DNA from: Candidatus Treponema merdequi
GTDB taxonomy: Bacteria > Spirochaetota > Spirochaetia > Treponematales > Treponemataceae
Length of the DNA: 64,000 nucleotides
Direction: 5' to 3'
Assembly (NCBI GenBank): GCA_018064525.1
Contig: JAGHVB010000014.1
Coordinates: 53,990-117,989, forward strand
Of the stretch, positions 1 to 62,204 are shown in pieces. Below the pieces are notes generated by a model, which saw nothing but the letters and a program-made list of their open reading frames with translations, had not been told where the DNA came from and searched no databases. The first letter of the stretch is position 1, and each line of letters begins with the position of its first letter. A program made the translations under genes and the position numbers.

Positions 1-551
1 ATGAAACAAAAATCTTAAAGAACGGACTTTCAAAACTCATCTGGATAGTTTCTCTTGATGCGATGAAAGGCGAGACATACGAAAAACTTCATCCTGGACT
101 CAAATATGAAAATGCTGTCGAATCAGTAAAATATTTGAACTCTCTTTTCGATGGAGCAGTATACGCACAGTACCTCAGACTTAACGAAAACGAAGATGAA
201 CTTGAATCGTTCTTCAGAACTTTCAAAGAAAAAACTTCAATCTCAGGCGGAAACTTCATCATCCAGAAATATGATAACTTCTGTAAAAAACTTGAAGACC
301 ACAAAAGTGCAGACCTTTCTCCTGTAGAAAGATTTCCGTGCTGGCATCTTAGACGTGATTTCAACATCCTTTCAAACGGCGATGTTCCGCTTTGTAAAAA
401 TAAAAGCTTTGATTCTCCGCTTGGAAATGTTTTTACAGATTCGATTGAAAGCATCTGGAATAAATTTGATTCTGAATTAAAAAAACATATTGAAAAAAAT
501 TACTGCAATGGCTGTGAGGTTTGCGATGAATTCTATACCTACAATTTTTAA
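1..551 (+). CDS. spiro-SPASM protein, C-terminal part (5' end outside window)
   Basis: The reading frame is open from base 3, so the ORF-track ATG at 63 is internal and the gene starts upstream of the window. The visible ~180 residues carry a SPASM-type auxiliary iron-sulfur cluster domain: a Cys in FPCWHL, one in VPLCK and a closing Cys cluster in NYCNGCEVCDEF, with the typical GNVFTDSIESIWN segment between. SPASM domains are normally C-terminal to radical-SAM domains that modify peptides or proteins, and a spirochete-restricted 'spiro-SPASM' family is known. The catalytic part is not visible, so no substrate can be named. The end overlaps the next gene by 26 bp, so they are probably co-translated. 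The downstream sugar-nucleotide and glycosyltransferase genes suggest a role in the same surface or flagellar modification pathway (inference). Confidence 0.75.
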   Translation, partial: ETKILKNGLSKLIWIVSLDAMKGETYEKLHPGLKYENAVESVKYLNSLFDGAVYAQYLRLNENEDELESFFRTFKEKTSISGGNFIIQKYDNFCKKLEDHKSADLSPVERFPCWHLRRDFNILSNGDVPLCKNKSFDSPLGNVFTDSIESIWNKFDSELKKHIEKNYCNGCEVCDEFYTYNF

Positions 552-1485
552 TGAAAGACTGATCAATCGCACTGTTCTCGGCGGAAAACGAAATCCAGAA
601 AAATCAAGGATGAATGTTTCTGTCCTGCTTTTAAACAGTGGCGGAATTCATCTTCGTTCTCAGAATCTTGAAAACTTGCAGAAATGCGGTTTTAAAAATA
701 TTATCTCGATGGAAAAAAATTCTTCAAGCTATAATCTTGAAGATCTTGCTAATAAATTTCCAACCGTAAAATTTATTATTCCTCAGGAAGAAGTGACTGA
801 TGGAGATCTGATTAATATCGGAATGTCGGAAACTGATGCAGATTATGTTTTTGTTTTAAGAGATTCTGTTCAGATTTCAAATTTTGTGCTTTCATCAAAT
901 ATTGCACAGAAACTTATTGAGAAAAACTGTTTCTGTTATGTTCCAAGAATGACTTTGGATAAACTTATGGTTGTTGATGTTGATTATATTCCGTTTGTAG
1001 AAAAGGGAGTTTTCAAAGTTACATCAACTTCAACAGTCGTTGATGGACGGCAGACTTTGTATCCGACTGCTTTTATCGGACTGTATAACAGACAGAAATT
1101 CATCCAGTTAGGCGGCTATGATTACACTATAAAAAGTCCTTACTGGCAGAATCTTGATCTTTCTCTAAGATCATGGCTCTGGGGTGAAAAGACAATAGTC
1201 ACAACAGGAATTACTCTTTCGTTTATTGAAAGTGCGCCTGTTGAAGATACGACAAGCAATTTAAGTCAGTTCAGATTTTATTTAAAGAATCTTGCGCCGG
1301 TATTTAATCTTGACCATGGAGAACTTTCAAAGTCTGCATTTTTCAGAACTTTAAGAAGAACAAGCTGCGGTTTTGTTGAGACAGTAAGACAGTTTAAAGA
1401 TGCCCGTGAATGGGTAGAAAAAAATAAGTATAGATTTAAAATGGATGCGGCTGGATTAATTACATCATGGGGAACAGAAAAATGA
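526..1485 (+). CDS. glycosyltransferase-like protein (GT-A fold, putative)
   Basis: About 319 residues. The ORF track extends to a TTG at 490, but ATG 526 has a GAGG ribosome site 8 bases upstream and is preferred. The region around residues 30-130 reads like a GT-A nucleotide-sugar-binding domain: a first strand NVSVLLLNSGG, then an alternating strand/helix pattern ending in ADYVFVLRDS, where the acidic residue could serve as the metal site. A later segment (YNRQKFIQLGGYDY) resembles the acceptor-side loop of family 2 glycosyltransferases, where the enzyme checks 'GGFDE'-like motifs. No signal peptide or membrane segment is seen. The ATGA overlap with the SpsF-like gene downstream argues for one operon. 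The donor and acceptor are unknown; it could also be a non-catalytic member of the fold. Confidence 0.6.
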   Translation: MNSIPTIFNERLINRTVLGGKRNPEKSRMNVSVLLLNSGGIHLRSQNLENLQKCGFKNIISMEKNSSSYNLEDLANKFPTVKFIIPQEEVTDGDLINIGMSETDADYVFVLRDSVQISNFVLSSNIAQKLIEKNCFCYVPRMTLDKLMVVDVDYIPFVEKGVFKVTSTSTVVDGRQTLYPTAFIGLYNRQKFIQLGGYDYTIKSPYWQNLDLSLRSWLWGEKTIVTTGITLSFIESAPVEDTTSNLSQFRFYLKNLAPVFNLDHGELSKSAFFRTLRRTSCGFVETVRQFKDAREWVEKNKYRFKMDAAGLITSWGTEK

Positions 1486-3953
1486 AAACAGCAGTAATCG
1501 TACAATGCAGATTATCTTCTACAAGACTTCCGTCAAAAGCAATTTATCCTCTTTCCGGACGACCTCTTTTAGCATGGACGTTGAGTGCAATGAAAAAGGT
1601 CATTGCTGATGAATATTTTGTTGCATGTGATTACGATTCAGAAAATGAACTTTTCCCAGTTTGCGAAAAAAACGGATTTAAAATTTTCGCCGGATCAAAA
1701 GATGATGTCCTTGACCGTTTTTGTACTCTGATTGAACGCGAAAAAATAGACATTGTACTTCGTGCAACTGCCGATAATCCTTTTTTGTTTTTTGATGCGG
1801 CTTCAGAACTTCTGGAACTTTTTAAAAATGAATATTCCGGAAAAGCAGATTACCTTACATTTACAGGACTTCCTCATGGAAGCGGAATCGAAGTGTTCAG
1901 CGGATCCTCGCTTTTAAAAGCACGTTCCCTTACAGATCTTGCTTACGATCATGAACATGTCGGACCATCTCTTTATAATCATCCCGACAGATTCAATTCT
2001 GTTTTTCTGCCTGCTCCTCAAAAGTATTATGCACCTCATTTAAGAACTACAATTGATACCAGAGCAGATTACATTCGTGCACTTGATATTATCAGTGACC
2101 TTTCAGAAAAAGATTTAAAACCTCCTTTCAATTCAAAAGATGTTATTGAATCATGTTCAGATTCTTCAATTGCAAAAAAGATTTTATATGTTCCCAGTAT
2201 CAGAAAATCACAGGGAACAGGTCATTTCAGAAGATGCGTAAAGCTTGCTCTTGAGACTAAAGGCGTTTTATTTATTGATGAAAGAGTAAAAGAAAAAATA
2301 GATTATTCAGAATTTCTGACTGATTTTCCAAAAGAAAAAATAATTACACAGCTTCCGTTAAAAGATGAATATGATCTGATTGTCTGTGATATGTTTAAAA
2401 TGACAGATGAAGATATTCAGACTTATAAAAATCTTTCAAAAACAGTTTTCATTGATGAAGGGTCTGGTTGTTTTGATGATCCTGATTATCTTCTTGATAT
2501 CATTCCGTCATACAATCTAAAACGTGAAGCAAATTTGGTTAATCCGTTTTTTATTGAATGCGGAAAAGAAATCAAAACTCAATTTCCACAGGAAAATAAA
2601 ATAAGCAGAGTTCTGGTAACATTTGGAGGCGAAGATCCTTCAGAACTTTCTTTGCCTGTTTCTTCTGTGCTTTTGAGCCTGGGCTACAATGTTACTGTTC
2701 TTATTAAAAATCCTTCTGATTTTACAGAAAAAATTCCGTCTCTGCTGCGTAAAAAAATTATGGCATTTTCAAAAATCGATGATTTAAAAAATCATCTTTA
2801 TGAATATGATCTTGTAATAACTCATTACGGTTTTACTGCTTACGAATGTCTTTATGCAAATACTCCGGTACTTCTTGTAAGTACATCAAAACTTCATGAA
2901 AATCTTTCAAAAAAATATGGTTTTGAATATGTTTCTAAAAACGCGATAAGTGAAAAAACATTTGCAAAAAAACTTTCTGACATATCAAAACTGACTTCAA
3001 AAAAATTCATAAAAAATACAGATAAAGATTTTTGTCTTTCAGAATTTATTCTTCAGCTTTCGCAGGCTAAAAAATATAATTGTCCTGTCTGCCAGAAAAA
3101 TACTTCAGATCCTGTCGTTTTCAGAACGGAACATCATACATTCAGAAGATGTTCTGAATGCAAAATGATTTATATTTCGTTTTCAGATGATTCTGAAAAC
3201 GTTGTATATCAGAAAAATTATTTTGCAGAAGAGTATAAAAAGCAGTATGGAAAAACATACCTTGACGATTTTGAATCAATAAAGAAAACCGGATATTCAA
3301 GAGTAAAAAATATACTTAAAGTTTTAAAAGTTAATGACGGAAATTCAAAATCAGTTCTTGATATAGGTTGTGCTTACGGTCCTTTTATGAAAGCTGCATC
3401 AGAAAAAGGTTTTAATTCCTGTGGAACTGATATAGCAGAAGATGCTGTTGAATATATAAATGAAACTTTAAAATTAAAAGCATCTATTTCTTCTTTTGCA
3501 GATGTCGATTCAAAAAAAGAATTCTCAGTAGATAAATTTGACGCTGTAACAATGTGGTATGTAATTGAGCATATAAAAGATTTAAAAACAAATCTGAAAA
3601 AGATAAACGGACTTTTAAAGCAGGGTGGTGTGTTTGCTTTTTCAACACCAAGTGCATCCGGTATTTCTGCCCGTTTCAATAAAAAGAGTTTTTATACACA
3701 AAGTCCGAAAGATCATTTTACAGTCTGGTCTCCCGAAAATACTGGTAAAGTCCTGATGAAATTCGGATTTAAAGTATGCAGAATTGTTTCAACAGGAATT
3801 CATCCGGAAAGAATTCCTTTTATAAAAAAACATAATATAAAATCCAGCTCACTCATCAGTAAATTTTCAGCTTCAGTAATGAAATTATTTAAGCTTGGCG
3901 ATACTTATGAAGTGTACTGTAAAAAGGTAAATGAAATCGATGATGAACGGTAA
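1482..3953 (+). CDS. SpsF-like cytidylyltransferase / PseG-like / SAM-methyltransferase fusion
   Basis: 823 residues starting at ATG 1482, which overlaps the previous stop (ATGA) and follows GGGGAA. Three domains are readable. Residues 1-230 are an SpsF/NeuA-type cytidylyltransferase (QCRLSSTRLPSKAI; ATADNPF). Residues ~232-520 resemble PseG, the UDP-sugar hydrolase of pseudaminic acid synthesis, or a related GT-B fold (GTGHFRRC, VTFGGEDPSE near 378, THYGFTAYE near 446). Residues ~530-823 have a CPVC...CSEC zinc-ribbon-like start followed by a class I methyltransferase with the SAM loop VLDIGCAYGPF near 625 and a C-terminal MTase helix set. Together they could activate, hydrolyse or transfer, and methylate a nonulosonate-like sugar (inference). 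PseG normally stands alone, so the fusion is notable. The gene overlaps the next start by 23 bp. Confidence 0.8.
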   Translation: MKTAVIVQCRLSSTRLPSKAIYPLSGRPLLAWTLSAMKKVIADEYFVACDYDSENELFPVCEKNGFKIFAGSKDDVLDRFCTLIEREKIDIVLRATADNPFLFFDAASELLELFKNEYSGKADYLTFTGLPHGSGIEVFSGSSLLKARSLTDLAYDHEHVGPSLYNHPDRFNSVFLPAPQKYYAPHLRTTIDTRADYIRALDIISDLSEKDLKPPFNSKDVIESCSDSSIAKKILYVPSIRKSQGTGHFRRCVKLALETKGVLFIDERVKEKIDYSEFLTDFPKEKIITQLPLKDEYDLIVCDMFKMTDEDIQTYKNLSKTVFIDEGSGCFDDPDYLLDIIPSYNLKREANLVNPFFIECGKEIKTQFPQENKISRVLVTFGGEDPSELSLPVSSVLLSLGYNVTVLIKNPSDFTEKIPSLLRKKIMAFSKIDDLKNHLYEYDLVITHYGFTAYECLYANTPVLLVSTSKLHENLSKKYGFEYVSKNAISEKTFAKKLSDISKLTSKKFIKNTDKDFCLSEFILQLSQAKKYNCPVCQKNTSDPVVFRTEHHTFRRCSECKMIYISFSDDSENVVYQKNYFAEEYKKQYGKTYLDDFESIKKTGYSRVKNILKVLKVNDGNSKSVLDIGCAYGPFMKAASEKGFNSCGTDIAEDAVEYINETLKLKASISSFADVDSKKEFSVDKFDAVTMWYVIEHIKDLKTNLKKINGLLKQGGVFAFSTPSASGISARFNKKSFYTQSPKDHFTVWSPENTGKVLMKFGFKVCRIVSTGIHPERIPFIKKHNIKSSSLISKFSASVMKLFKLGDTYEVYCKKVNEIDDER

Positions 3954-5550
3954 ATCTATTTTAATATTGGGCGCAGGTTTGATGCAGAAACCTGCCATAG
4001 TAAGTGCAAAGGAACTCGGACTTAAAGTATTTGTAATTGATGCAAATGATAAAGCTGTATGCGTAAGTCTTGCTGATGTTTTTAAGAAAATCGACTTAAA
4101 AGACCGCGAACAGATTGCTTCTTACGCTGTTGAATTAAAACAGAAAGAAAATCTTTCAGCAGTTTTTACTGCAGGAACTGATTTTTCTGCATCAGTTTCT
4201 TACGCAAGTGAAAAGGCAGGCCTTCTGTCACATTCATTTGAAGCTGCACTCAATGCAAGTGAAAAAACACTTATGAGGACAGCATTTGATAAAAAATCCG
4301 TTCCATCTCCTAAATTCATCAAAATTACCAGAGATAAAATCTGCGAGACACTGACACCGGAATTTGTTTCTTCACTTGTATATCCCTGTGTTGTAAAACC
4401 TGTTGACAATATGGGTGCCCGTGGCTGCAGGATGATACGAAATAAAAGTGAACTTTTATTCAGCGTTGAAGAAGCAATAAAATATTCAAGAAGCGGAACC
4501 TGTATATTTGAACAGTATATGCCGGGACCTGAATTTTCTATTGATGCTCTTGTCTATGACGGAACAATGACAATAACTGGTTTTGCAGACAGACATATTT
4601 ATTTTCCACCGTATTTCATTGAAACAGGACACACAATGCCGACATCTGTTTCAAAAGATGAATATGATGAACTTGTAAAAACTTTTTCAGAAGGTGTTCA
4701 CGCACTCGGACTTACAAGAGGAGCTGCAAAAGCAGACATCAAATATACAGAAAATGGACCGATGATCGGAGAAATTGCAGCGCGACTTTCAGGCGGTTAT
4801 ATGTCCGGCTGGACTTATCCTTATTCTTCAGATTTAAATCTGACAAAGGCTGCAATTCAGATTGCGTGCGGAGAAGTTCCACTTGAACTTGAAGCAAACA
4901 GAAAAGAACTTGATATTAATTCACCATTTAAACTTTTTGCCGTTGAAAGCAAAAGGGTAAGTGCAGAACGTGCATGGATTTCAATTCCTGGTGTTGTAAA
5001 AAATATTTACGGACTTGATCAGAAATATAACGAAAATATAATTAAAAATATTTTACCGCGTGTTCAGAAAGGAGATACCGTAACATTTCCTCGCAACAAT
5101 GTTGAAAAATGCGGAAACATAATTTCAGTTTCTGAAAACCGAAAAGAAGCAGTTTCTGAATGTGAAAACTTTATTAAAAATATTACGATTGAACTTGAAG
5201 AAAATAATGAAGCAACAACAGCATTTCTTGAAGGAAAAAAACATCCTCAGGAAAAAGATTTTCCTCCGAATGCTTTTAATCTTTCCGGTGGAATTATCAA
5301 GGCCCTTGAACTTGAACTTGAAAAAAAAGACATTTCAATTCCTGAAAAAATGAATGTTTTAAATTTCATTCCTGATATTTTAAATTCCGAAGAAATCTTA
5401 AAAGTCCGTGACTGGAATTATCTGTCATTGCAGGAAACTCTTGAAAAGTTTAATATGTTGAAACATAATCACAAAAAACTTGATTACAGAAAATTCTGGC
5501 TTTATTTAATCCGCGGGGGAATTCAGGGTGCGCTTTATGCAGCAGAGTAA
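3931..5550 (+). CDS. ATP-grasp ligase (carbamoyl-phosphate synthase / PurK-like)
   Basis: 539 residues; ATGs at 3931, 3940 and 3943 are all possible, with AAGG just before the first. Residues ~5-110 form a Rossmann-like pre-ATP-grasp domain (SILILGAG). The ATP-grasp core follows: the phosphate-loop lysine in YPCVVKPVDNMGARG near 150, EQYMPGPEFSIDALV near 195, and the metal-binding GEIAARLSGGYMSG near 285. The ~140 residues after the core are not recognised. ATP-grasp enzymes join a carboxylate to an amine or thiol by way of an acyl-phosphate. Sitting inside a sugar-modification cassette, it may attach an amino acid or acyl group to a sugar or protein (inference). It overlaps the genes on both sides, so translation is probably coupled. 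Confidence 0.8.
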   Translation: MKSMMNGKSILILGAGLMQKPAIVSAKELGLKVFVIDANDKAVCVSLADVFKKIDLKDREQIASYAVELKQKENLSAVFTAGTDFSASVSYASEKAGLLSHSFEAALNASEKTLMRTAFDKKSVPSPKFIKITRDKICETLTPEFVSSLVYPCVVKPVDNMGARGCRMIRNKSELLFSVEEAIKYSRSGTCIFEQYMPGPEFSIDALVYDGTMTITGFADRHIYFPPYFIETGHTMPTSVSKDEYDELVKTFSEGVHALGLTRGAAKADIKYTENGPMIGEIAARLSGGYMSGWTYPYSSDLNLTKAAIQIACGEVPLELEANRKELDINSPFKLFAVESKRVSAERAWISIPGVVKNIYGLDQKYNENIIKNILPRVQKGDTVTFPRNNVEKCGNIISVSENRKEAVSECENFIKNITIELEENNEATTAFLEGKKHPQEKDFPPNAFNLSGGIIKALELELEKKDISIPEKMNVLNFIPDILNSEEILKVRDWNYLSLQETLEKFNMLKHNHKKLDYRKFWLYLIRGGIQGALYAAE

Positions 5551-6577
5551 AAAGTTTTATTCGTTTTTTATTTTATTTTTTTCTTTAGTTTCGTTTGCAT
5601 TTTCACAGGTACAGGATAAAAATCTTGTAGATGAAATTAAAAAAAGTGGAATTTCTTTCTACTGGGATTCACTTTCAAATACCGGCATTCTTGAAAAAAA
5701 TAATCAGCATCTTGTCTTCAGACCAGATCAGAATTTTGTTCTTTACAACAGTTCAAAAATCGGTTACATAGATTCACCGGTAATTACTGACGGACAGATA
5801 AAAGTAAGTCAGGATTTCCTTTCAGAAATTGACGACTTTTTTGCAGTTTCAGATGATTCTTCAAGTCTTAAAATCGGAGCAATAATCATTGATCCGGGAC
5901 ACGGCGGAAAAGATCCTGGTGCAAGCATGACTCATAAAATCAACGGAAAAAATGTAACTGTAAAAGAAAAAGATGTAAATCTTACAGTCGGAAACATGCT
6001 TTCAGGAATGCTTTCAAAAGCATATCCCGATAAACGCATCATCATGACAAGAAGTACAGATATCTTTTTAACTTTACAGCAGAGAACAGAAATTGCAAAT
6101 TCCGTAAAATTAAAAGATGATGAAGCCGTTCTGTACATTTCAATTCATGTAAACGCATCTCTTGATAAAAAAGCCAAAGGATATGAAGTCTGGTATCTTA
6201 CTCCGGGCTACCGCAGAACTGTAATCGATTCAAAAACAAATGCAGATCCGACTGTACGCAATATTTTGAATTCGATGATGGAAGAAGAATATACAACAGA
6301 AAGCATTCTCATAGCAAAGTTTATTATGGATGGACTTAATGCACAGATTGGTTCAAAATCAGCATCCCGCGGAATAAAAGCCGAGGAATGGTTTGTAGTA
6401 AGAAATTCCAAAATGCCAAGTGTTCTTATTGAACTTGGATTTTTGACAAATTATGAAGAAGCATGCTGTCTTAATGATAAAGCATACTTGCAAAAGTCCG
6501 CCCTGGGGATATATAATGGAATATCAGCGTTCGTTACTCATTTTGAACGTTCGCGCGGCTTTACAGGAACTAAATAA
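5537..6577 (+). CDS. N-acetylmuramoyl-L-alanine amidase (Amidase_3), exported
   Basis: 346 residues from ATG 5537; the GTG at 5528 is less likely because AGGGTG sits 6 bases before the ATG. The N-terminus is a signal peptide (hydrophobic FFILFFSLVSFAFS). The catalytic domain has the zinc-amidase signatures IIDPGHGGKDPGA (His and Glu ligands, near 117), SIHVNAS (His, near 200) and the closing ELGFLTN with the catalytic Glu near 298. It should cut the amide bond between muramic acid and the stem peptide in the periplasm, for daughter-cell separation or wall remodelling around periplasmic flagella. A 100-residue N-terminal part lies before the catalytic domain and may direct localisation. It overlaps the ATP-grasp gene by 14 bp and the next start by 1 bp. 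Confidence 0.92.
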   Translation: MQQSKKFYSFFILFFSLVSFAFSQVQDKNLVDEIKKSGISFYWDSLSNTGILEKNNQHLVFRPDQNFVLYNSSKIGYIDSPVITDGQIKVSQDFLSEIDDFFAVSDDSSSLKIGAIIIDPGHGGKDPGASMTHKINGKNVTVKEKDVNLTVGNMLSGMLSKAYPDKRIIMTRSTDIFLTLQQRTEIANSVKLKDDEAVLYISIHVNASLDKKAKGYEVWYLTPGYRRTVIDSKTNADPTVRNILNSMMEEEYTTESILIAKFIMDGLNAQIGSKSASRGIKAEEWFVVRNSKMPSVLIELGFLTNYEEACCLNDKAYLQKSALGIYNGISAFVTHFERSRGFTGTK

Positions 6578-7163: not shown

Positions 7164-8225
7164 ATGAAGAGAACTTTCTATTTATTGGCATCAGTATTGT
7201 TGCTTGCCGGTTCTTTATCTTTTGCTGACAAGGCTATGTTGATTGACTTCGCACAGCTTGATGCAGATTGCTGCAATGACGCAAAGACAAACCAGCCAAC
7301 ACAGAACAAACGTACTGTTATGGATTTCTCTGTATCTGCAGGTGCAACATTCACTGAAGATCAGAAAGGACTTATGAAGACATCATTGGCATTGCCTGAG
7401 TGGGAAATAGACTTGAACTCTTCTGCTCGCAATGTAGGAAGTCTTGCAGAATCAAAAGTTGTTGCTGCTCCTGTAAAAGACAGCGCTAAGGTACCATTTG
7501 CTGGTAAAAACGTAATGGGTGTTCGCGTAATATTCCCATCTATCGCTTGCAATGCAAATGCAAAAATCGTACCTCCATTTGATATCCCAGCTTATGAACC
7601 ATTAGCTGACCGTGATGACAATGGTAACAAGCAGGAACCAACAGACGAACAGAAAGCAAGTGGAAAAACACTTTTCGAAGATGGATATGGTGTTGTAAAA
7701 AATGTTGGAACAGTAAAATCTATTTCTGTTCTTACAATGGGTATGAACTATCCACACGGACTTTATGTTCTTCTTAAAGACAATGACAATATCGAACGTC
7801 GTTATTTCATGGGTTACCTCGGATTTGACGGATGGAAAACTTTGGTTTGGAACAACCCACAGTACATTTCTGAAATCCGCCAGCGCGAAATCCGTGTATA
7901 TCCAATCTATCCACGTGGACTTCCATTCGTAAAATTCACAGGATTCCAGATCACTCGTGACGCAGCTCACATCGGTGACAACTACATTGGATATTTCAAA
8001 GACGTACAGATTATTTACGACAAAGCACTTCTTACATCTGACCGCGACATCGCTGATGAAGACCTCTGGGGAATCATCACAAAGAAAGAAACAGCTCGTC
8101 AGACAGCAGAAATGTCTCGCTTCGGAAATACACAGGTTAACCGCTATCTCGAAAGAGAAAAGATGGATACTGAAAACTACTTCTCAGCTGAAGATGGTAT
8201 CAAGGCTGAAGAGAACAATCAGTAA
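7164..8225 (+). CDS. flaA: flagellar filament outer layer (sheath) protein FlaA
   Basis: 353 residues with a clear signal peptide ending SLSFA. FlaA is the periplasmic sheath protein that covers the FlaB core of spirochete endoflagella. The body shows the FlaA hallmarks: ISVLTMGMNYPHGLYVLL, a GYLGFDGWKTLVWNNP strand pair, and IRVYPIYPRGLPFVKF. The length matches the usual ~350 residues. An acidic tail ends EEDGIKAEENNQ. Codon use is rich in C-ending codons, as expected for an abundant protein and unlike the A/T-ending codons of the upstream cassette. It has its own promoter, AAAGGAG ribosome site and a perfect terminator, so it is a single-gene transcript. Confidence 0.95.
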   Translation: MKRTFYLLASVLLLAGSLSFADKAMLIDFAQLDADCCNDAKTNQPTQNKRTVMDFSVSAGATFTEDQKGLMKTSLALPEWEIDLNSSARNVGSLAESKVVAAPVKDSAKVPFAGKNVMGVRVIFPSIACNANAKIVPPFDIPAYEPLADRDDNGNKQEPTDEQKASGKTLFEDGYGVVKNVGTVKSISVLTMGMNYPHGLYVLLKDNDNIERRYFMGYLGFDGWKTLVWNNPQYISEIRQREIRVYPIYPRGLPFVKFTGFQITRDAAHIGDNYIGYFKDVQIIYDKALLTSDRDIADEDLWGIITKKETARQTAEMSRFGNTQVNRYLEREKMDTENYFSAEDGIKAEENNQ

Positions 8226-60848: not shown

Positions 60849-62204
60849 TTAGTTATTATTTTTATCTGCCATATATTTTCTGTATTTTTCCGGATTGACT
60901 CTGAAAGCAATAATTGGACTTTCAGGGTCATCTTTTGCATGGAACAAAGCCTGTTCTGCTTCTGCTATAAGACGTTCTCCAGAAATAAATCTGAGTGAAC
61001 GGGAAGCGATTCCGATATATGGTTTCTCTTTAATATTGTATCCGCTTAAAGTTGAACAGAGTTCTGCATAAATCAATTCACCGCTGTCCATTGCCTTATC
61101 AATATCAGCATTGCTATATATAACTGCGATACCGTCTTTCTTATATTCAAAAAGCATGTCTTTGTAGTGAAAAATATCGATGAGATGTTTACAAATTTCA
61201 ATTCCATGAGGAGTATCAAAGTTGATTGACGGAATCTGAATAAGCATTAAAGAAATATCAATTTCTCCGCTTGCAGCTCTGGCAAGTTCACTTTCAAGTC
61301 TGGTTTCAAGATATTTTTCAAAACAGAAACCTGTTGTAGAACTGAATAAATCTTCATGTTCCGGAGCTGGTTTTGAAAGAACTTCATCAATTGATTCGGA
61401 ATCAGTTTTTGTTTTCTGTATATCATTATCTGATTCTGTTGATTCTTCAGCTTTTATATTTTCTGTGATTTCTGGCTGGAAAGTTTCTGTATCATCTGAA
61501 ATTTCTGTTTGAGAAGATTCAGTATTTTGTTCAATTTCTGTTTCTGGAACTTCCGTGTTTTCTGAAATTTCTGTTTCTTCTGTGATTTCCATTTCTGAAA
61601 CATCTGTTTCGGACTGGAGTTTTGAATCGTCAATACTGTCAGTCTGGGAATCTTCCTGTTCAAAAGATTCAGAATCAAAATCATTGTCTGTCTGTGTCTG
61701 TCTGTGAGTTTTTGAAGTTCCACTTAAATATAAAGACATGAGACAGATTGCGCTTACACAGGTTGCTGATAAGATAATGATAAATGCAACTTTTGCACGT
61801 GAGAAAATCAAATTGAGTGGAAGAGTATAAATCTGAACTGTCAATGTCATATCAACAGTATTTCCTTCTGTAATTCTTCGGGAATCTGTAATTGTCAGTC
61901 CTCGTTTTGAGGATTTTTCAGAAGGAAAAACATAAATTTCCTGTGAAGGTGTTTCAAGTTTAATTGTATAATAATAATCAGGACTTCCGATTGCTCTTGT
62001 AAAACTTTTTATAAAATCTGAATCCGGATATTTATAGTAAGAAATTGATTCTTCTGTCTGTCTGTAAAGTTTATCAAGTTTTTCGCGGGCAGATGTCTGT
62101 CCGATTTTATAATCTTCGTAAAGAACGGCTCCTGTGCCGATTAAAGTTCCTGCAAATGTAAAGCAGATAAGGATGACAATAACATTAAAAAATTTCTTAT
62201 TCAT
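60849..62204 (-). CDS. membrane protein with acidic repeats and degenerate GGDEF-like domain
   Basis: 451 residues. TM1 (VIVILICFTFAGTLIGTGAVL), a ~110-residue periplasmic part, TM2 (~residue 140), then a ~130-residue Glu/Thr/Ser-rich linker of short repeats (EITEETEISENTEVPETEI), then a C-terminal domain whose order (FCFEKYLETRLESELARAASG ... LFEYKKDGIAVIYSNADID ... YIGIASRS) resembles diguanylate cyclase GGDEF domains. The GGDEF motif itself is absent (KKDG where RYGGDEF should be), so it is probably catalytically dead, a c-di-GMP or protein-binding relic. It overlaps the upstream DUF115 gene by 4 bp. Confidence 0.78.
   Translation of the reverse strand: MNKKFFNVIVILICFTFAGTLIGTGAVLYEDYKIGQTSAREKLDKLYRQTEESISYYKYPDSDFIKSFTRAIGSPDYYYTIKLETPSQEIYVFPSEKSSKRGLTITDSRRITEGNTVDMTLTVQIYTLPLNLIFSRAKVAFIIILSATCVSAICLMSLYLSGTSKTHRQTQTDNDFDSESFEQEDSQTDSIDDSKLQSETDVSEMEITEETEISENTEVPETEIEQNTESSQTEISDDTETFQPEITENIKAEESTESDNDIQKTKTDSESIDEVLSKPAPEHEDLFSSTTGFCFEKYLETRLESELARAASGEIDISLMLIQIPSINFDTPHGIEICKHLIDIFHYKDMLFEYKKDGIAVIYSNADIDKAMDSGELIYAELCSTLSGYNIKEKPYIGIASRSLRFISGERLIAEAEQALFHAKDDPESPIIAFRVNPEKYRKYMADKNNN

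What the first reader, a model, noticed from the sequence alone, without database searches (positions are those of the whole stretch)
1..5550. Overlapping glycan cassette with SpsF/PseG/methyltransferase fusion
Four overlapping genes (SPASM-type, GT-A-like, three-domain fusion, ATP-grasp) are co-translated. The fusion puts a CMP-transferase-like, a PseG-like and a methyltransferase domain in one chain, which I do not recall as a described enzyme. Along with a DUF115/Maf-like gene at 62-63.7 kb and FlaA, this suggests an undescribed nonulosonate-like or other sugar modification for flagella or surface in treponemes.
Basis: partly seen in the sequence, partly recalled or inferred. Interest (0 to 1): 0.65.

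Follow-up and report, generated by a model that had tools for sequence, protein, structure and literature searches.

The report
Spirochete flagellin sugar-making gene cassette
Four overlapping genes, one of them a fusion of three enzymes, very probably make the unusual acidic sugar that spirochetes attach to their flagella; they are found in every flagellated spirochete genome examined except one lineage, most likely the Borrelia family, whose flagellins carry acidic residues where the sugar-bearing serines would be.

Summary
Window 1-5550 carries the end of a radical-SAM/SPASM gene (whole gene 541 aa, mostly upstream of the window), a GT-A-fold protein, an SpsF-PseG-methyltransferase fusion and an ATP-grasp ligase, all with overlapping starts. 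This is not a local oddity. The order is conserved in Treponema and across many spirochete families, usually followed by an amidase and flaA; where the fusion is split, SpsF lies just upstream of a PseG-methyltransferase chain. In 80 genomes, the ATP-grasp, radical-SAM, Maf and PseG-methyltransferase genes occur in all 57 flagellated genomes outside one family, and are absent from that family (8 flagellated genomes, inferred to be Borreliaceae) and from 15 genomes without flagellin (bar one weak Maf hit). PseB-, PseC- and NeuB-like genes complete a nonulosonate pathway in the same genome. Flagellins of cassette-bearing genomes keep the two serine motifs reported as glycosylated in T. denticola; the cassette-less family has Glu and Asp there in 8 of 8. 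Best reading: the cassette makes the known 450.2-Da flagellin nonulosonate. The target is FlaB rather than FlaA, and the glycan is known, though I found no published gene assignment. New variant of a known kind. Substrates are inferred, not assayed.

The parts
1..551 (+). C-terminal third (SPASM part) of a 541-aa radical-SAM/SPASM 'spiro-SPASM' protein; the gene starts about 1.08 kb upstream of the window (G000:C15; L002:8913-10541). Its N-terminal ~230 aa form a degenerate SpsF-like domain
   Evidence: TIGR04321 510.9 bits, cut-off 250; SPASM PF13186; CxxxCxxC in the translation; SPASM Cys invariant in 28 sequences; profile-profile match of N-domain to SpsF, prob 96.8%, E 2e-10
526..1485 (+). 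GT-A-fold, glycosyltransferase-like protein (GTA), metal-binding DXD not conserved
   Evidence: AlphaFold2 pLDDT 89.8; Foldseek best hits GalNAc-T enzymes, E 2e-11, TMq about 0.6; DXD region variable; no Pfam/NCBIfam family
1482..3953 (+). Three-domain fusion: SpsF-like cytidylyltransferase, PseG/SpsG-like, methyltransferase (ATG 1467 also possible)
   Evidence: single open frame in nearly all Treponemataceae examined
1482..2141 (+). SpsF-like CMP-transferase domain
   Evidence: PF02348 95 bits; PDB 6oew E 8e-42 by profile; invariant Q13, R15, S18, R20, K24, D103, N104, E142, E163, H164, D197 in 32 sequences
2142..3056 (+). PseG/SpsG-like UDP-sugar hydrolase domain (GT-B fold); invariant His codon at 2223-2225
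   Evidence: TIGR03590 50 bits; profile finds PseG 3hbm first, E 7e-7, aligning the invariant His with PseG His17; AlphaFold2 pLDDT 92.6; Foldseek includes PseG 3hbn/3hbm
3072..3950 (+). SAM-dependent methyltransferase domain with N-terminal Cys pairs (CPVC...CSEC)
   Evidence: PF13489 81 bits; 27 invariant residues in 59 sequences incl. D97, G99, G103
3931..5550 (+). ATP-grasp carboxylate-amine ligase with L-amino-acid-ligase-type C-terminal domain
   Evidence: PF13535 61.9 bits, LAL_C2 PF18603 40.1 bits; orthologue in 57/57 flagellated genomes outside family f6, absent from f6 and from flagellin-less genomes
5528..6577 (+). N-acetylmuramoyl-L-alanine amidase, conserved neighbour, overlapping start
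   Evidence: PF01520 157 bits; next to the cassette in most loci
7164..8225 (+). FlaA flagellar sheath protein, conserved neighbour
   Evidence: PF04620 252 bits; downstream of the cassette in 20 of the 32 extended loci L049-L080, several of the others cut by contig ends
62201..63754 (-). Maf-type (MptE-like/PseD-like) protein, candidate flagellin NulO transferase, one of four in the genome
   Evidence: PF01973 103 bits; NF050051 PseD 50 bits, cut-off 670; distribution

Best explanation
The cassette makes and activates an acyl-substituted, O-methylated nonulosonic acid (NulO) of the pseudaminic/legionaminic type that Maf-type transferases put on serines of the FlaB flagellins before export. 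Proposed route: PseB- and PseC-like enzymes (same contig, about 18 kb upstream) convert UDP-GlcNAc to a UDP-4-amino sugar. The ATP-grasp ligase joins a carboxylic acid to that amine (the later N7) by an amide bond. The methyltransferase domain O-methylates the acyl part, giving in T. denticola the 450.2-Da glycan. The PseG-like domain removes UDP; the separate NeuB condenses the sugar with PEP; the SpsF-like domain forms CMP-NulO; Maf transfers it to FlaB. The fusion thus holds the steps just before and just after NeuB in one chain, which would suit substrate channelling. The radical-SAM protein, whose N-domain is a degenerate SpsF, may make the deoxy acid or act on the nucleotide-bound sugar. 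The GT-A protein's role is open. Shown here: domain identity, conserved active-site residues, gene order, genomic partners, distribution, acceptor-site correlation. Inferred: every substrate, the order of acylation and methylation, and the transfer to FlaB in this organism.
For: Domains and catalytic residues. Only one CTP_transf_3 match in the genome, namely this fusion, and one true NeuB (the second hit is DAHP synthase). Adjacent PseB-like and PseC-like genes (PseC model the best match, 325 bits). Conserved order with flaA. Distribution: fusion parts, NeuB, ATP-grasp, spiro-SPASM and Maf present in 57/57 flagellated genomes outside f6, while f6 (8/8 flagellated) lacks all and the 15 flagellin-less genomes lack the cassette. 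Acceptor sites: the two serines in the motifs VEVSQL and DRIAS, named for T. denticola in PMC7431986, are Ser/Ser in 52 of 61 flagellin reads from cassette genomes and Glu/Asp in 8/8 from f6. Genetic precedent for the sps enzymes: B. subtilis SpsG and SpsF act in a CMP-legionaminate pathway (PMC7439481). Precedent for methyltransferase plus ATP-grasp: S. oneidensis sfmABCDE is needed for a 274-Da mono-N-acetyl NulO bearing an O-methylated side group (PMC3765264). Arithmetic: 274.116 + 176.068 (2-methoxy-4,5,6-trihydroxyhexanoyl, the acyl group I recall for T. denticola) = 450.185 Da, matching the 450.2 Da in PMC9481697.
Against: No biochemical or mutant evidence for these genes was found. The PseG and NeuB matches fall below NCBIfam equivalog cut-offs. 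GT-B glycosyltransferases (YjiC, MurG) match the PseG-domain model as well as or better than PseG. The 57/57 pattern reflects few independent events (essentially loss in f6 and loss in the flagellin-less families), so it is weaker than the counts suggest. The GT-A protein has no evident role in a glycan that is a single substituted NulO. The acyl structure of the T. denticola glycan is from memory; the primary paper was not held. The VEVSQL/DRIAS Ser to Glu/Asp change in f6 could be lineage drift.
Confidence: 0.72

Rival explanations
1. The cassette makes a NulO or other sugar for a surface polysaccharide or envelope glycan, and its place beside flaA is incidental.
For: NulO pathways also serve surface glycans, e.g. 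Leptospira (PMC3438082) and spore crust (PMC7439481). An amidase and other envelope genes sit next door.
Against: Distribution follows flagellin within the class; flagellin-less families lack it. The genome inferred to be T. pallidum from its size (1,139,633 bases), a species known for lacking LPS, keeps all parts. FlaB acceptor serines are lost in the flagellated family that lacks it.
Confidence: 0.13
2. The PseG-like domain is a GT-B glycosyltransferase, and fusion plus GT-A protein build an oligosaccharide rather than a single substituted NulO.
For: Foldseek ranks YjiC and MurG above PseG; GT-A fold next door.
Against: Only PseG is a clearly significant family match and it is the first PDB profile hit, with the GxGHxxR His aligned. 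The reported T. denticola glycan is 450.2 Da, too small for an oligosaccharide with a NulO.
Confidence: 0.1
3. The methyltransferase, radical-SAM and ATP-grasp proteins modify flagellin or another protein directly (e.g. amino-acid methylation or ligation), independent of the sugar.
For: SPASM radical-SAM enzymes often mature peptides; S. oneidensis flagellin also has methyl-lysines (PMC3765264).
Against: Methyltransferase and PseG-like domains share one chain even where SpsF is separate. The radical-SAM protein carries an SpsF-like domain, which points to a sugar nucleotide.
Confidence: 0.05

Closest known systems
CMP-pseudaminic acid pathway of Campylobacter/Helicobacter (PseB, C, H, G, I, F) with Maf/PseD transfer
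   Same: PseB-, PseC-, PseG-, NeuB/PseI-like and Maf-like parts all present; flagellin target proposed
   Different: CMP-transfer, PseG-like and methyltransferase parts in one chain; SpsF-type instead of PseF; ATP-grasp ligase and radical-SAM protein added; NeuB unlinked. PseH was not searched for
B. subtilis sps operon (SpsC, D, E, F, G, M), CMP-legionaminate
   Same: SpsF and SpsG-type enzymes; NeuB-type synthase; PseC/SpsC-type aminotransferase
   Different: separate genes, no methyltransferase, ATP-grasp or radical-SAM; spore surface rather than flagella; the treponeme dehydratase has Tyr (YxxxK) where SpsM has Met146
Shewanella oneidensis sfmABCDE flagellin modification
   Same: SAM methyltransferase plus ATP-grasp_4 ligase needed for a mono-N-acetyl NulO with an O-methylated substituent; Maf genes nearby
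   Different: no fusion, no radical-SAM, different substituent mass (236-264 Da versus 176 Da); direct homology to sfm proteins not tested
T. denticola FlaB glycan, 450.2 Da (Kurniyati 2017)
   Same: presumed product; mass fits mono-acetyl NulO plus methoxy-acyl
   Different: a structure, not a gene set; I found no gene assignment in held papers
TIGR04321 spiro-SPASM
   Same: the first gene is a full member
   Different: model gives no function; linkage to NulO synthesis and the degenerate SpsF-like N-domain are additions here

Membership tests
SpsF / CTP_transf_3 (CMP-sugar synthetase) | family score above cut-off | tested here: met
   PF02348 95 bits versus 22.6
SpsF / CTP_transf_3 (CMP-sugar synthetase) | conserved nucleotide/metal-site residues | tested here: met
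   R15, S18, R20, K24, D103, E142, E163-H164, D197 invariant in 32 sequences; aligned with 6oew
SpsF / CTP_transf_3 (CMP-sugar synthetase) | CTP + NulO gives CMP-NulO | not testable with these tools
   needs enzyme assay
PseG (TIGR03590) | equivalog score above 153.55 bits | tested here: not met
   50 bits, E 2.6e-13; hence filed as PseG/SpsG-like only
PseG (TIGR03590) | GxGHxxR with catalytic His17 | tested here: met
   G25, H28 and R31 invariant in 51 sequences, aligned with His17 of 3hbm; catalytic role of His17 from knowledge
PseG (TIGR03590) | GT-B fold closest to PseG | tested here: inconclusive
   GT-B fold; YjiC and MurG rank above PseG, TM 0.55-0.61 for all
NulO pathway | NeuB-type synthase in genome | tested here: met
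   PF03102 189.5 bits; TIGR03569 228 bits, below equivalog cut-off
NulO pathway | 4,6-dehydratase and aminotransferase | tested here: met
   adjacent PseB-like (182 bits) and PseC-like (325 bits) genes, both below equivalog cut-offs
NulO pathway | N-acetyltransferase (PseH-type) | not tested
   not searched
Maf flagellin transferase | MptE-like/Maf domain | tested here: met
   PF01973 103 bits versus 34.6; PseD model NF050051 50 versus 670, not met
spiro-SPASM TIGR04321 | score above 250 bits | tested here: met
   510.9 bits
ATP-grasp carboxylate-amine ligase | ATP-grasp domain and LAL_C2 | tested here: met
   PF13535 61.9/27, PF18603 40.1/29.4 bits
GT2/GT27 glycosyltransferase (GT-A protein) | GT-A fold | tested here: met
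   Foldseek E 2e-11, TMq about 0.6
GT2/GT27 glycosyltransferase (GT-A protein) | conserved DXD/DXH metal motif | tested here: not met
   positions 125-126 are D in 50% and 39% of rows
Shewanella sfm-type system | homologous SfmD/SfmE proteins | not tested
   only domain types compared, from PMC3765264

The most novel reading that the evidence does not exclude
The cassette is the long-missing gene set of the spirochete flagellin NulO. One polypeptide carries out the steps on either side of NeuB and also O-methylates, while a radical-SAM enzyme with a dead CMP-transferase domain builds an acyl group found on no other known NulO. The lineage inferred to be Borreliaceae lost the whole pathway and replaced both glycosylated flagellin serines by acidic residues, keeping the negative charge at the core-sheath interface.
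Probability: 0.35. Interest if true: 0.78.

Novelty: new variant of a known kind. Interest (0 to 1): 0.6.

Why it matters
Spirochete flagellins have been reported as glycosylated since the 1990s. The T. denticola glycan is essential for filament assembly and motility, and recent cryo-EM places glycans at the core-sheath interface in Leptospira (PMC13144727). A gene set that fits that glycan, present even in a 1.14-Mb treponeme genome, makes its synthesis and role directly testable. It gives a function hypothesis to the unassigned spiro-SPASM family and to a fusion with no curated model, and it offers a simple explanation of why one flagellated family does without the glycan.

Tried and rejected
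Pfam and NCBIfam on the GT-A protein found no family; profile search of PDB gave only weak nucleotidyltransferase hits; the fold search settled the GT-A fold. A single-sequence PDB search of the PseG domain gave nothing; the profile did. The second NeuB hit in the genome is DAHP synthase, not NulO synthase. Plasmid records gave SpsF-domain matches of 34.8% identity or less in other phyla and no full fusion; nothing outside Spirochaetota was searched more deeply. Loss of the ATP-grasp in treponemes that lack it next to the fusion was considered and rejected: it is present elsewhere in their genomes. FlaA as the glycosylated target was considered and set aside. Literature searches for a gene assignment of the treponeme glycan found none; the primary 2017 paper and the PseG structure paper were not held.
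Full report
What is there. The window is G000:C15:53990-117989 of a 2.7-Mb genome. Its closest named relative among the loci fetched is 'Candidatus Treponema scatequi' (79% identity over the fusion). Reading upstream shows that the first gene is a 541-aa radical-SAM/SPASM protein of the spirochete-specific family TIGR04321 (510.9 bits, cut-off 250), of which the window holds the last third. Then follow a GT-A-like protein (ATG 526), the fusion (ATGA overlap at 1482-1485), an ATP-grasp ligase (starts inside the fusion) and an amidase (starts inside the ligase gene).

Domains. The fusion has an SpsF-type cytidylyltransferase domain with its nucleotide-site residues invariant, a PseG/SpsG-like domain (TIGR03590 50 bits, below the 153.6-bit cut-off) and a methyltransferase. 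A profile of 51 PseG-like domains finds Campylobacter PseG (3hbm) first in the PDB, and the only invariant His aligns with PseG His17. The predicted structure (pLDDT 92.6) is GT-B and matches PseG, but also MurG and YjiC, so hydrolase activity is likely rather than proven. The GT-A protein model (pLDDT 89.8) resembles polypeptide GalNAc-transferases, but its metal motif is not conserved. The N-terminal domain of the radical-SAM protein is a degenerate relative of SpsF (hhalign probability 96.8%, E 2e-10) without the conserved Arg/Lys motif.

Conservation. In 30 Treponema-type loci the radical-SAM, GT-A and fusion genes are always adjacent, and the ATP-grasp gene follows in 29. In wider samples the order radical-SAM, GT-A, SpsF, PseG-methyltransferase, ATP-grasp, amidase, GerM, FlaA recurs across families. 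In many of them SpsF is a separate gene just upstream of a PseG-methyltransferase chain, while elsewhere, including some lineages outside the class, all three are fused. Genomes G056 (1,139,633 bases, the size of T. pallidum) and G031 (2.76 Mb; perhaps an oral treponeme) keep radical-SAM, GT-A and fusion together with the ATP-grasp gene elsewhere.

Pathway context. The genome has one true NeuB and, about 18 kb upstream of the cassette on the same contig, overlapping PseB-like and PseC-like genes. The PseB-like enzymes of this genome, G031 and G056 have YxxxK at the catalytic site, unlike the Met-type enzyme in G029. Four Maf/MptE-type genes are present, one in the window. This is a complete set of NulO steps apart from the N-acyl step, for which the ATP-grasp ligase is the candidate (a PseH-type acetyltransferase was not searched for).

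Distribution. In 80 genomes: flagellin in 65; ATP-grasp in 57; spiro-SPASM in the same 57 (55 over the cut-off; the only other matches are two weak ones); Maf in the same 57 plus one weak hit; fusion parts and NeuB in the same 57. The eight flagellated genomes without them form one family, f6, with 1.0-1.8-Mb genomes and 334-336-aa flagellins, inferred to be Borreliaceae. The other 15 have no flagellin. Two caveats: losses in related genomes are not independent, and a few flagellin-less genomes have a NeuB for other uses.

Acceptor sites. PMC7431986 names VEVSQL and DRIAS as the glycosylated regions of T. denticola FlaB and notes that the serines are replaced in B. burgdorferi. I read these positions in 73 flagellin stretches: 52 of 61 readable reads from cassette genomes have Ser at both (one Brachyspira-size flagellin, L130/L187, is counted twice), four reads did not fit the pattern, and all eight from f6 have Glu and Asp. 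Replacement by acidic residues would keep a negative charge that the NulO carboxylate otherwise supplies; this is an inference.

Product. PMC9481697 gives 450.2 Da for the T. denticola FlaB glycan and says it is needed for filament assembly and motility. The structure I recall, a mono-acetyl NulO with a 2-methoxy-4,5,6-trihydroxyhexanoyl group, computes to 450.185 Da. It calls for an amide ligase and an O-methyltransferase, both present here. S. oneidensis sfmABCDE offers a tested precedent for methyltransferase plus ATP-grasp in such a glycan (PMC3765264), and B. subtilis spsF/spsG one for the sps enzymes (PMC7439481).

Verdict. The novelty lies not in a new kind of modification but in a conserved, partly new gene set for a known one: a fusion that brackets the NeuB step, a radical-SAM partner with a dead SpsF-like domain, and a distribution that tracks flagellin glycosylation. 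Substrates and order of steps remain untested.

Noticed in passing
Flagellin loci L124-L129, L135, L136 (family f6) versus the rest: The two serines reported as glycosylated in T. denticola FlaB are Glu and Asp in all eight f6 flagellins, the flagellated family that lacks the whole pathway.
   Followed up: yes
L002:8913-9614 (just upstream of the window): The N-terminal domain of the spiro-SPASM protein is a degenerate SpsF-like domain; TIGR04321 itself picks up an SpsF gene weakly in G138.
   Followed up: partly
L003:6799-12850: The PseB/PseC-like pair is followed at once by a three-gene molybdopterin dehydrogenase set (MoCo, 2Fe-2S, FAD subunits) on the same strand with overlapping starts; whether it shares the operon or acts on the sugar acid is unknown.
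   Followed up: no
L047:9476-10597: NeuB is an orphan gene next to hisS, unlinked to the rest of the pathway.
   Followed up: partly
window 60849-62204: Gene overlapping the Maf-type gene; only sub-threshold matches (GGDEF 19.9 bits).
   Followed up: no
G118, G136, G003, G087 and other genomes outside the class: The ATP-grasp orthologue sits in an open frame of about 720-800 aa there, suggesting an extra C-terminal domain.
   Followed up: no
L063-L065 (Brachyspira-size genomes): PseG-methyltransferase chains occur without the flaA neighbourhood; flagellins of such genomes (L130, L155, L180) have Asn instead of Ser in the first site.
   Followed up: no
G000: C30, C40, C78 and window 62.2-63.75 kb: Four Maf/MptE-type genes in one genome, and 2-6 in nearly all cassette-bearing genomes, which may mean several acceptor specificities.
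   Followed up: no
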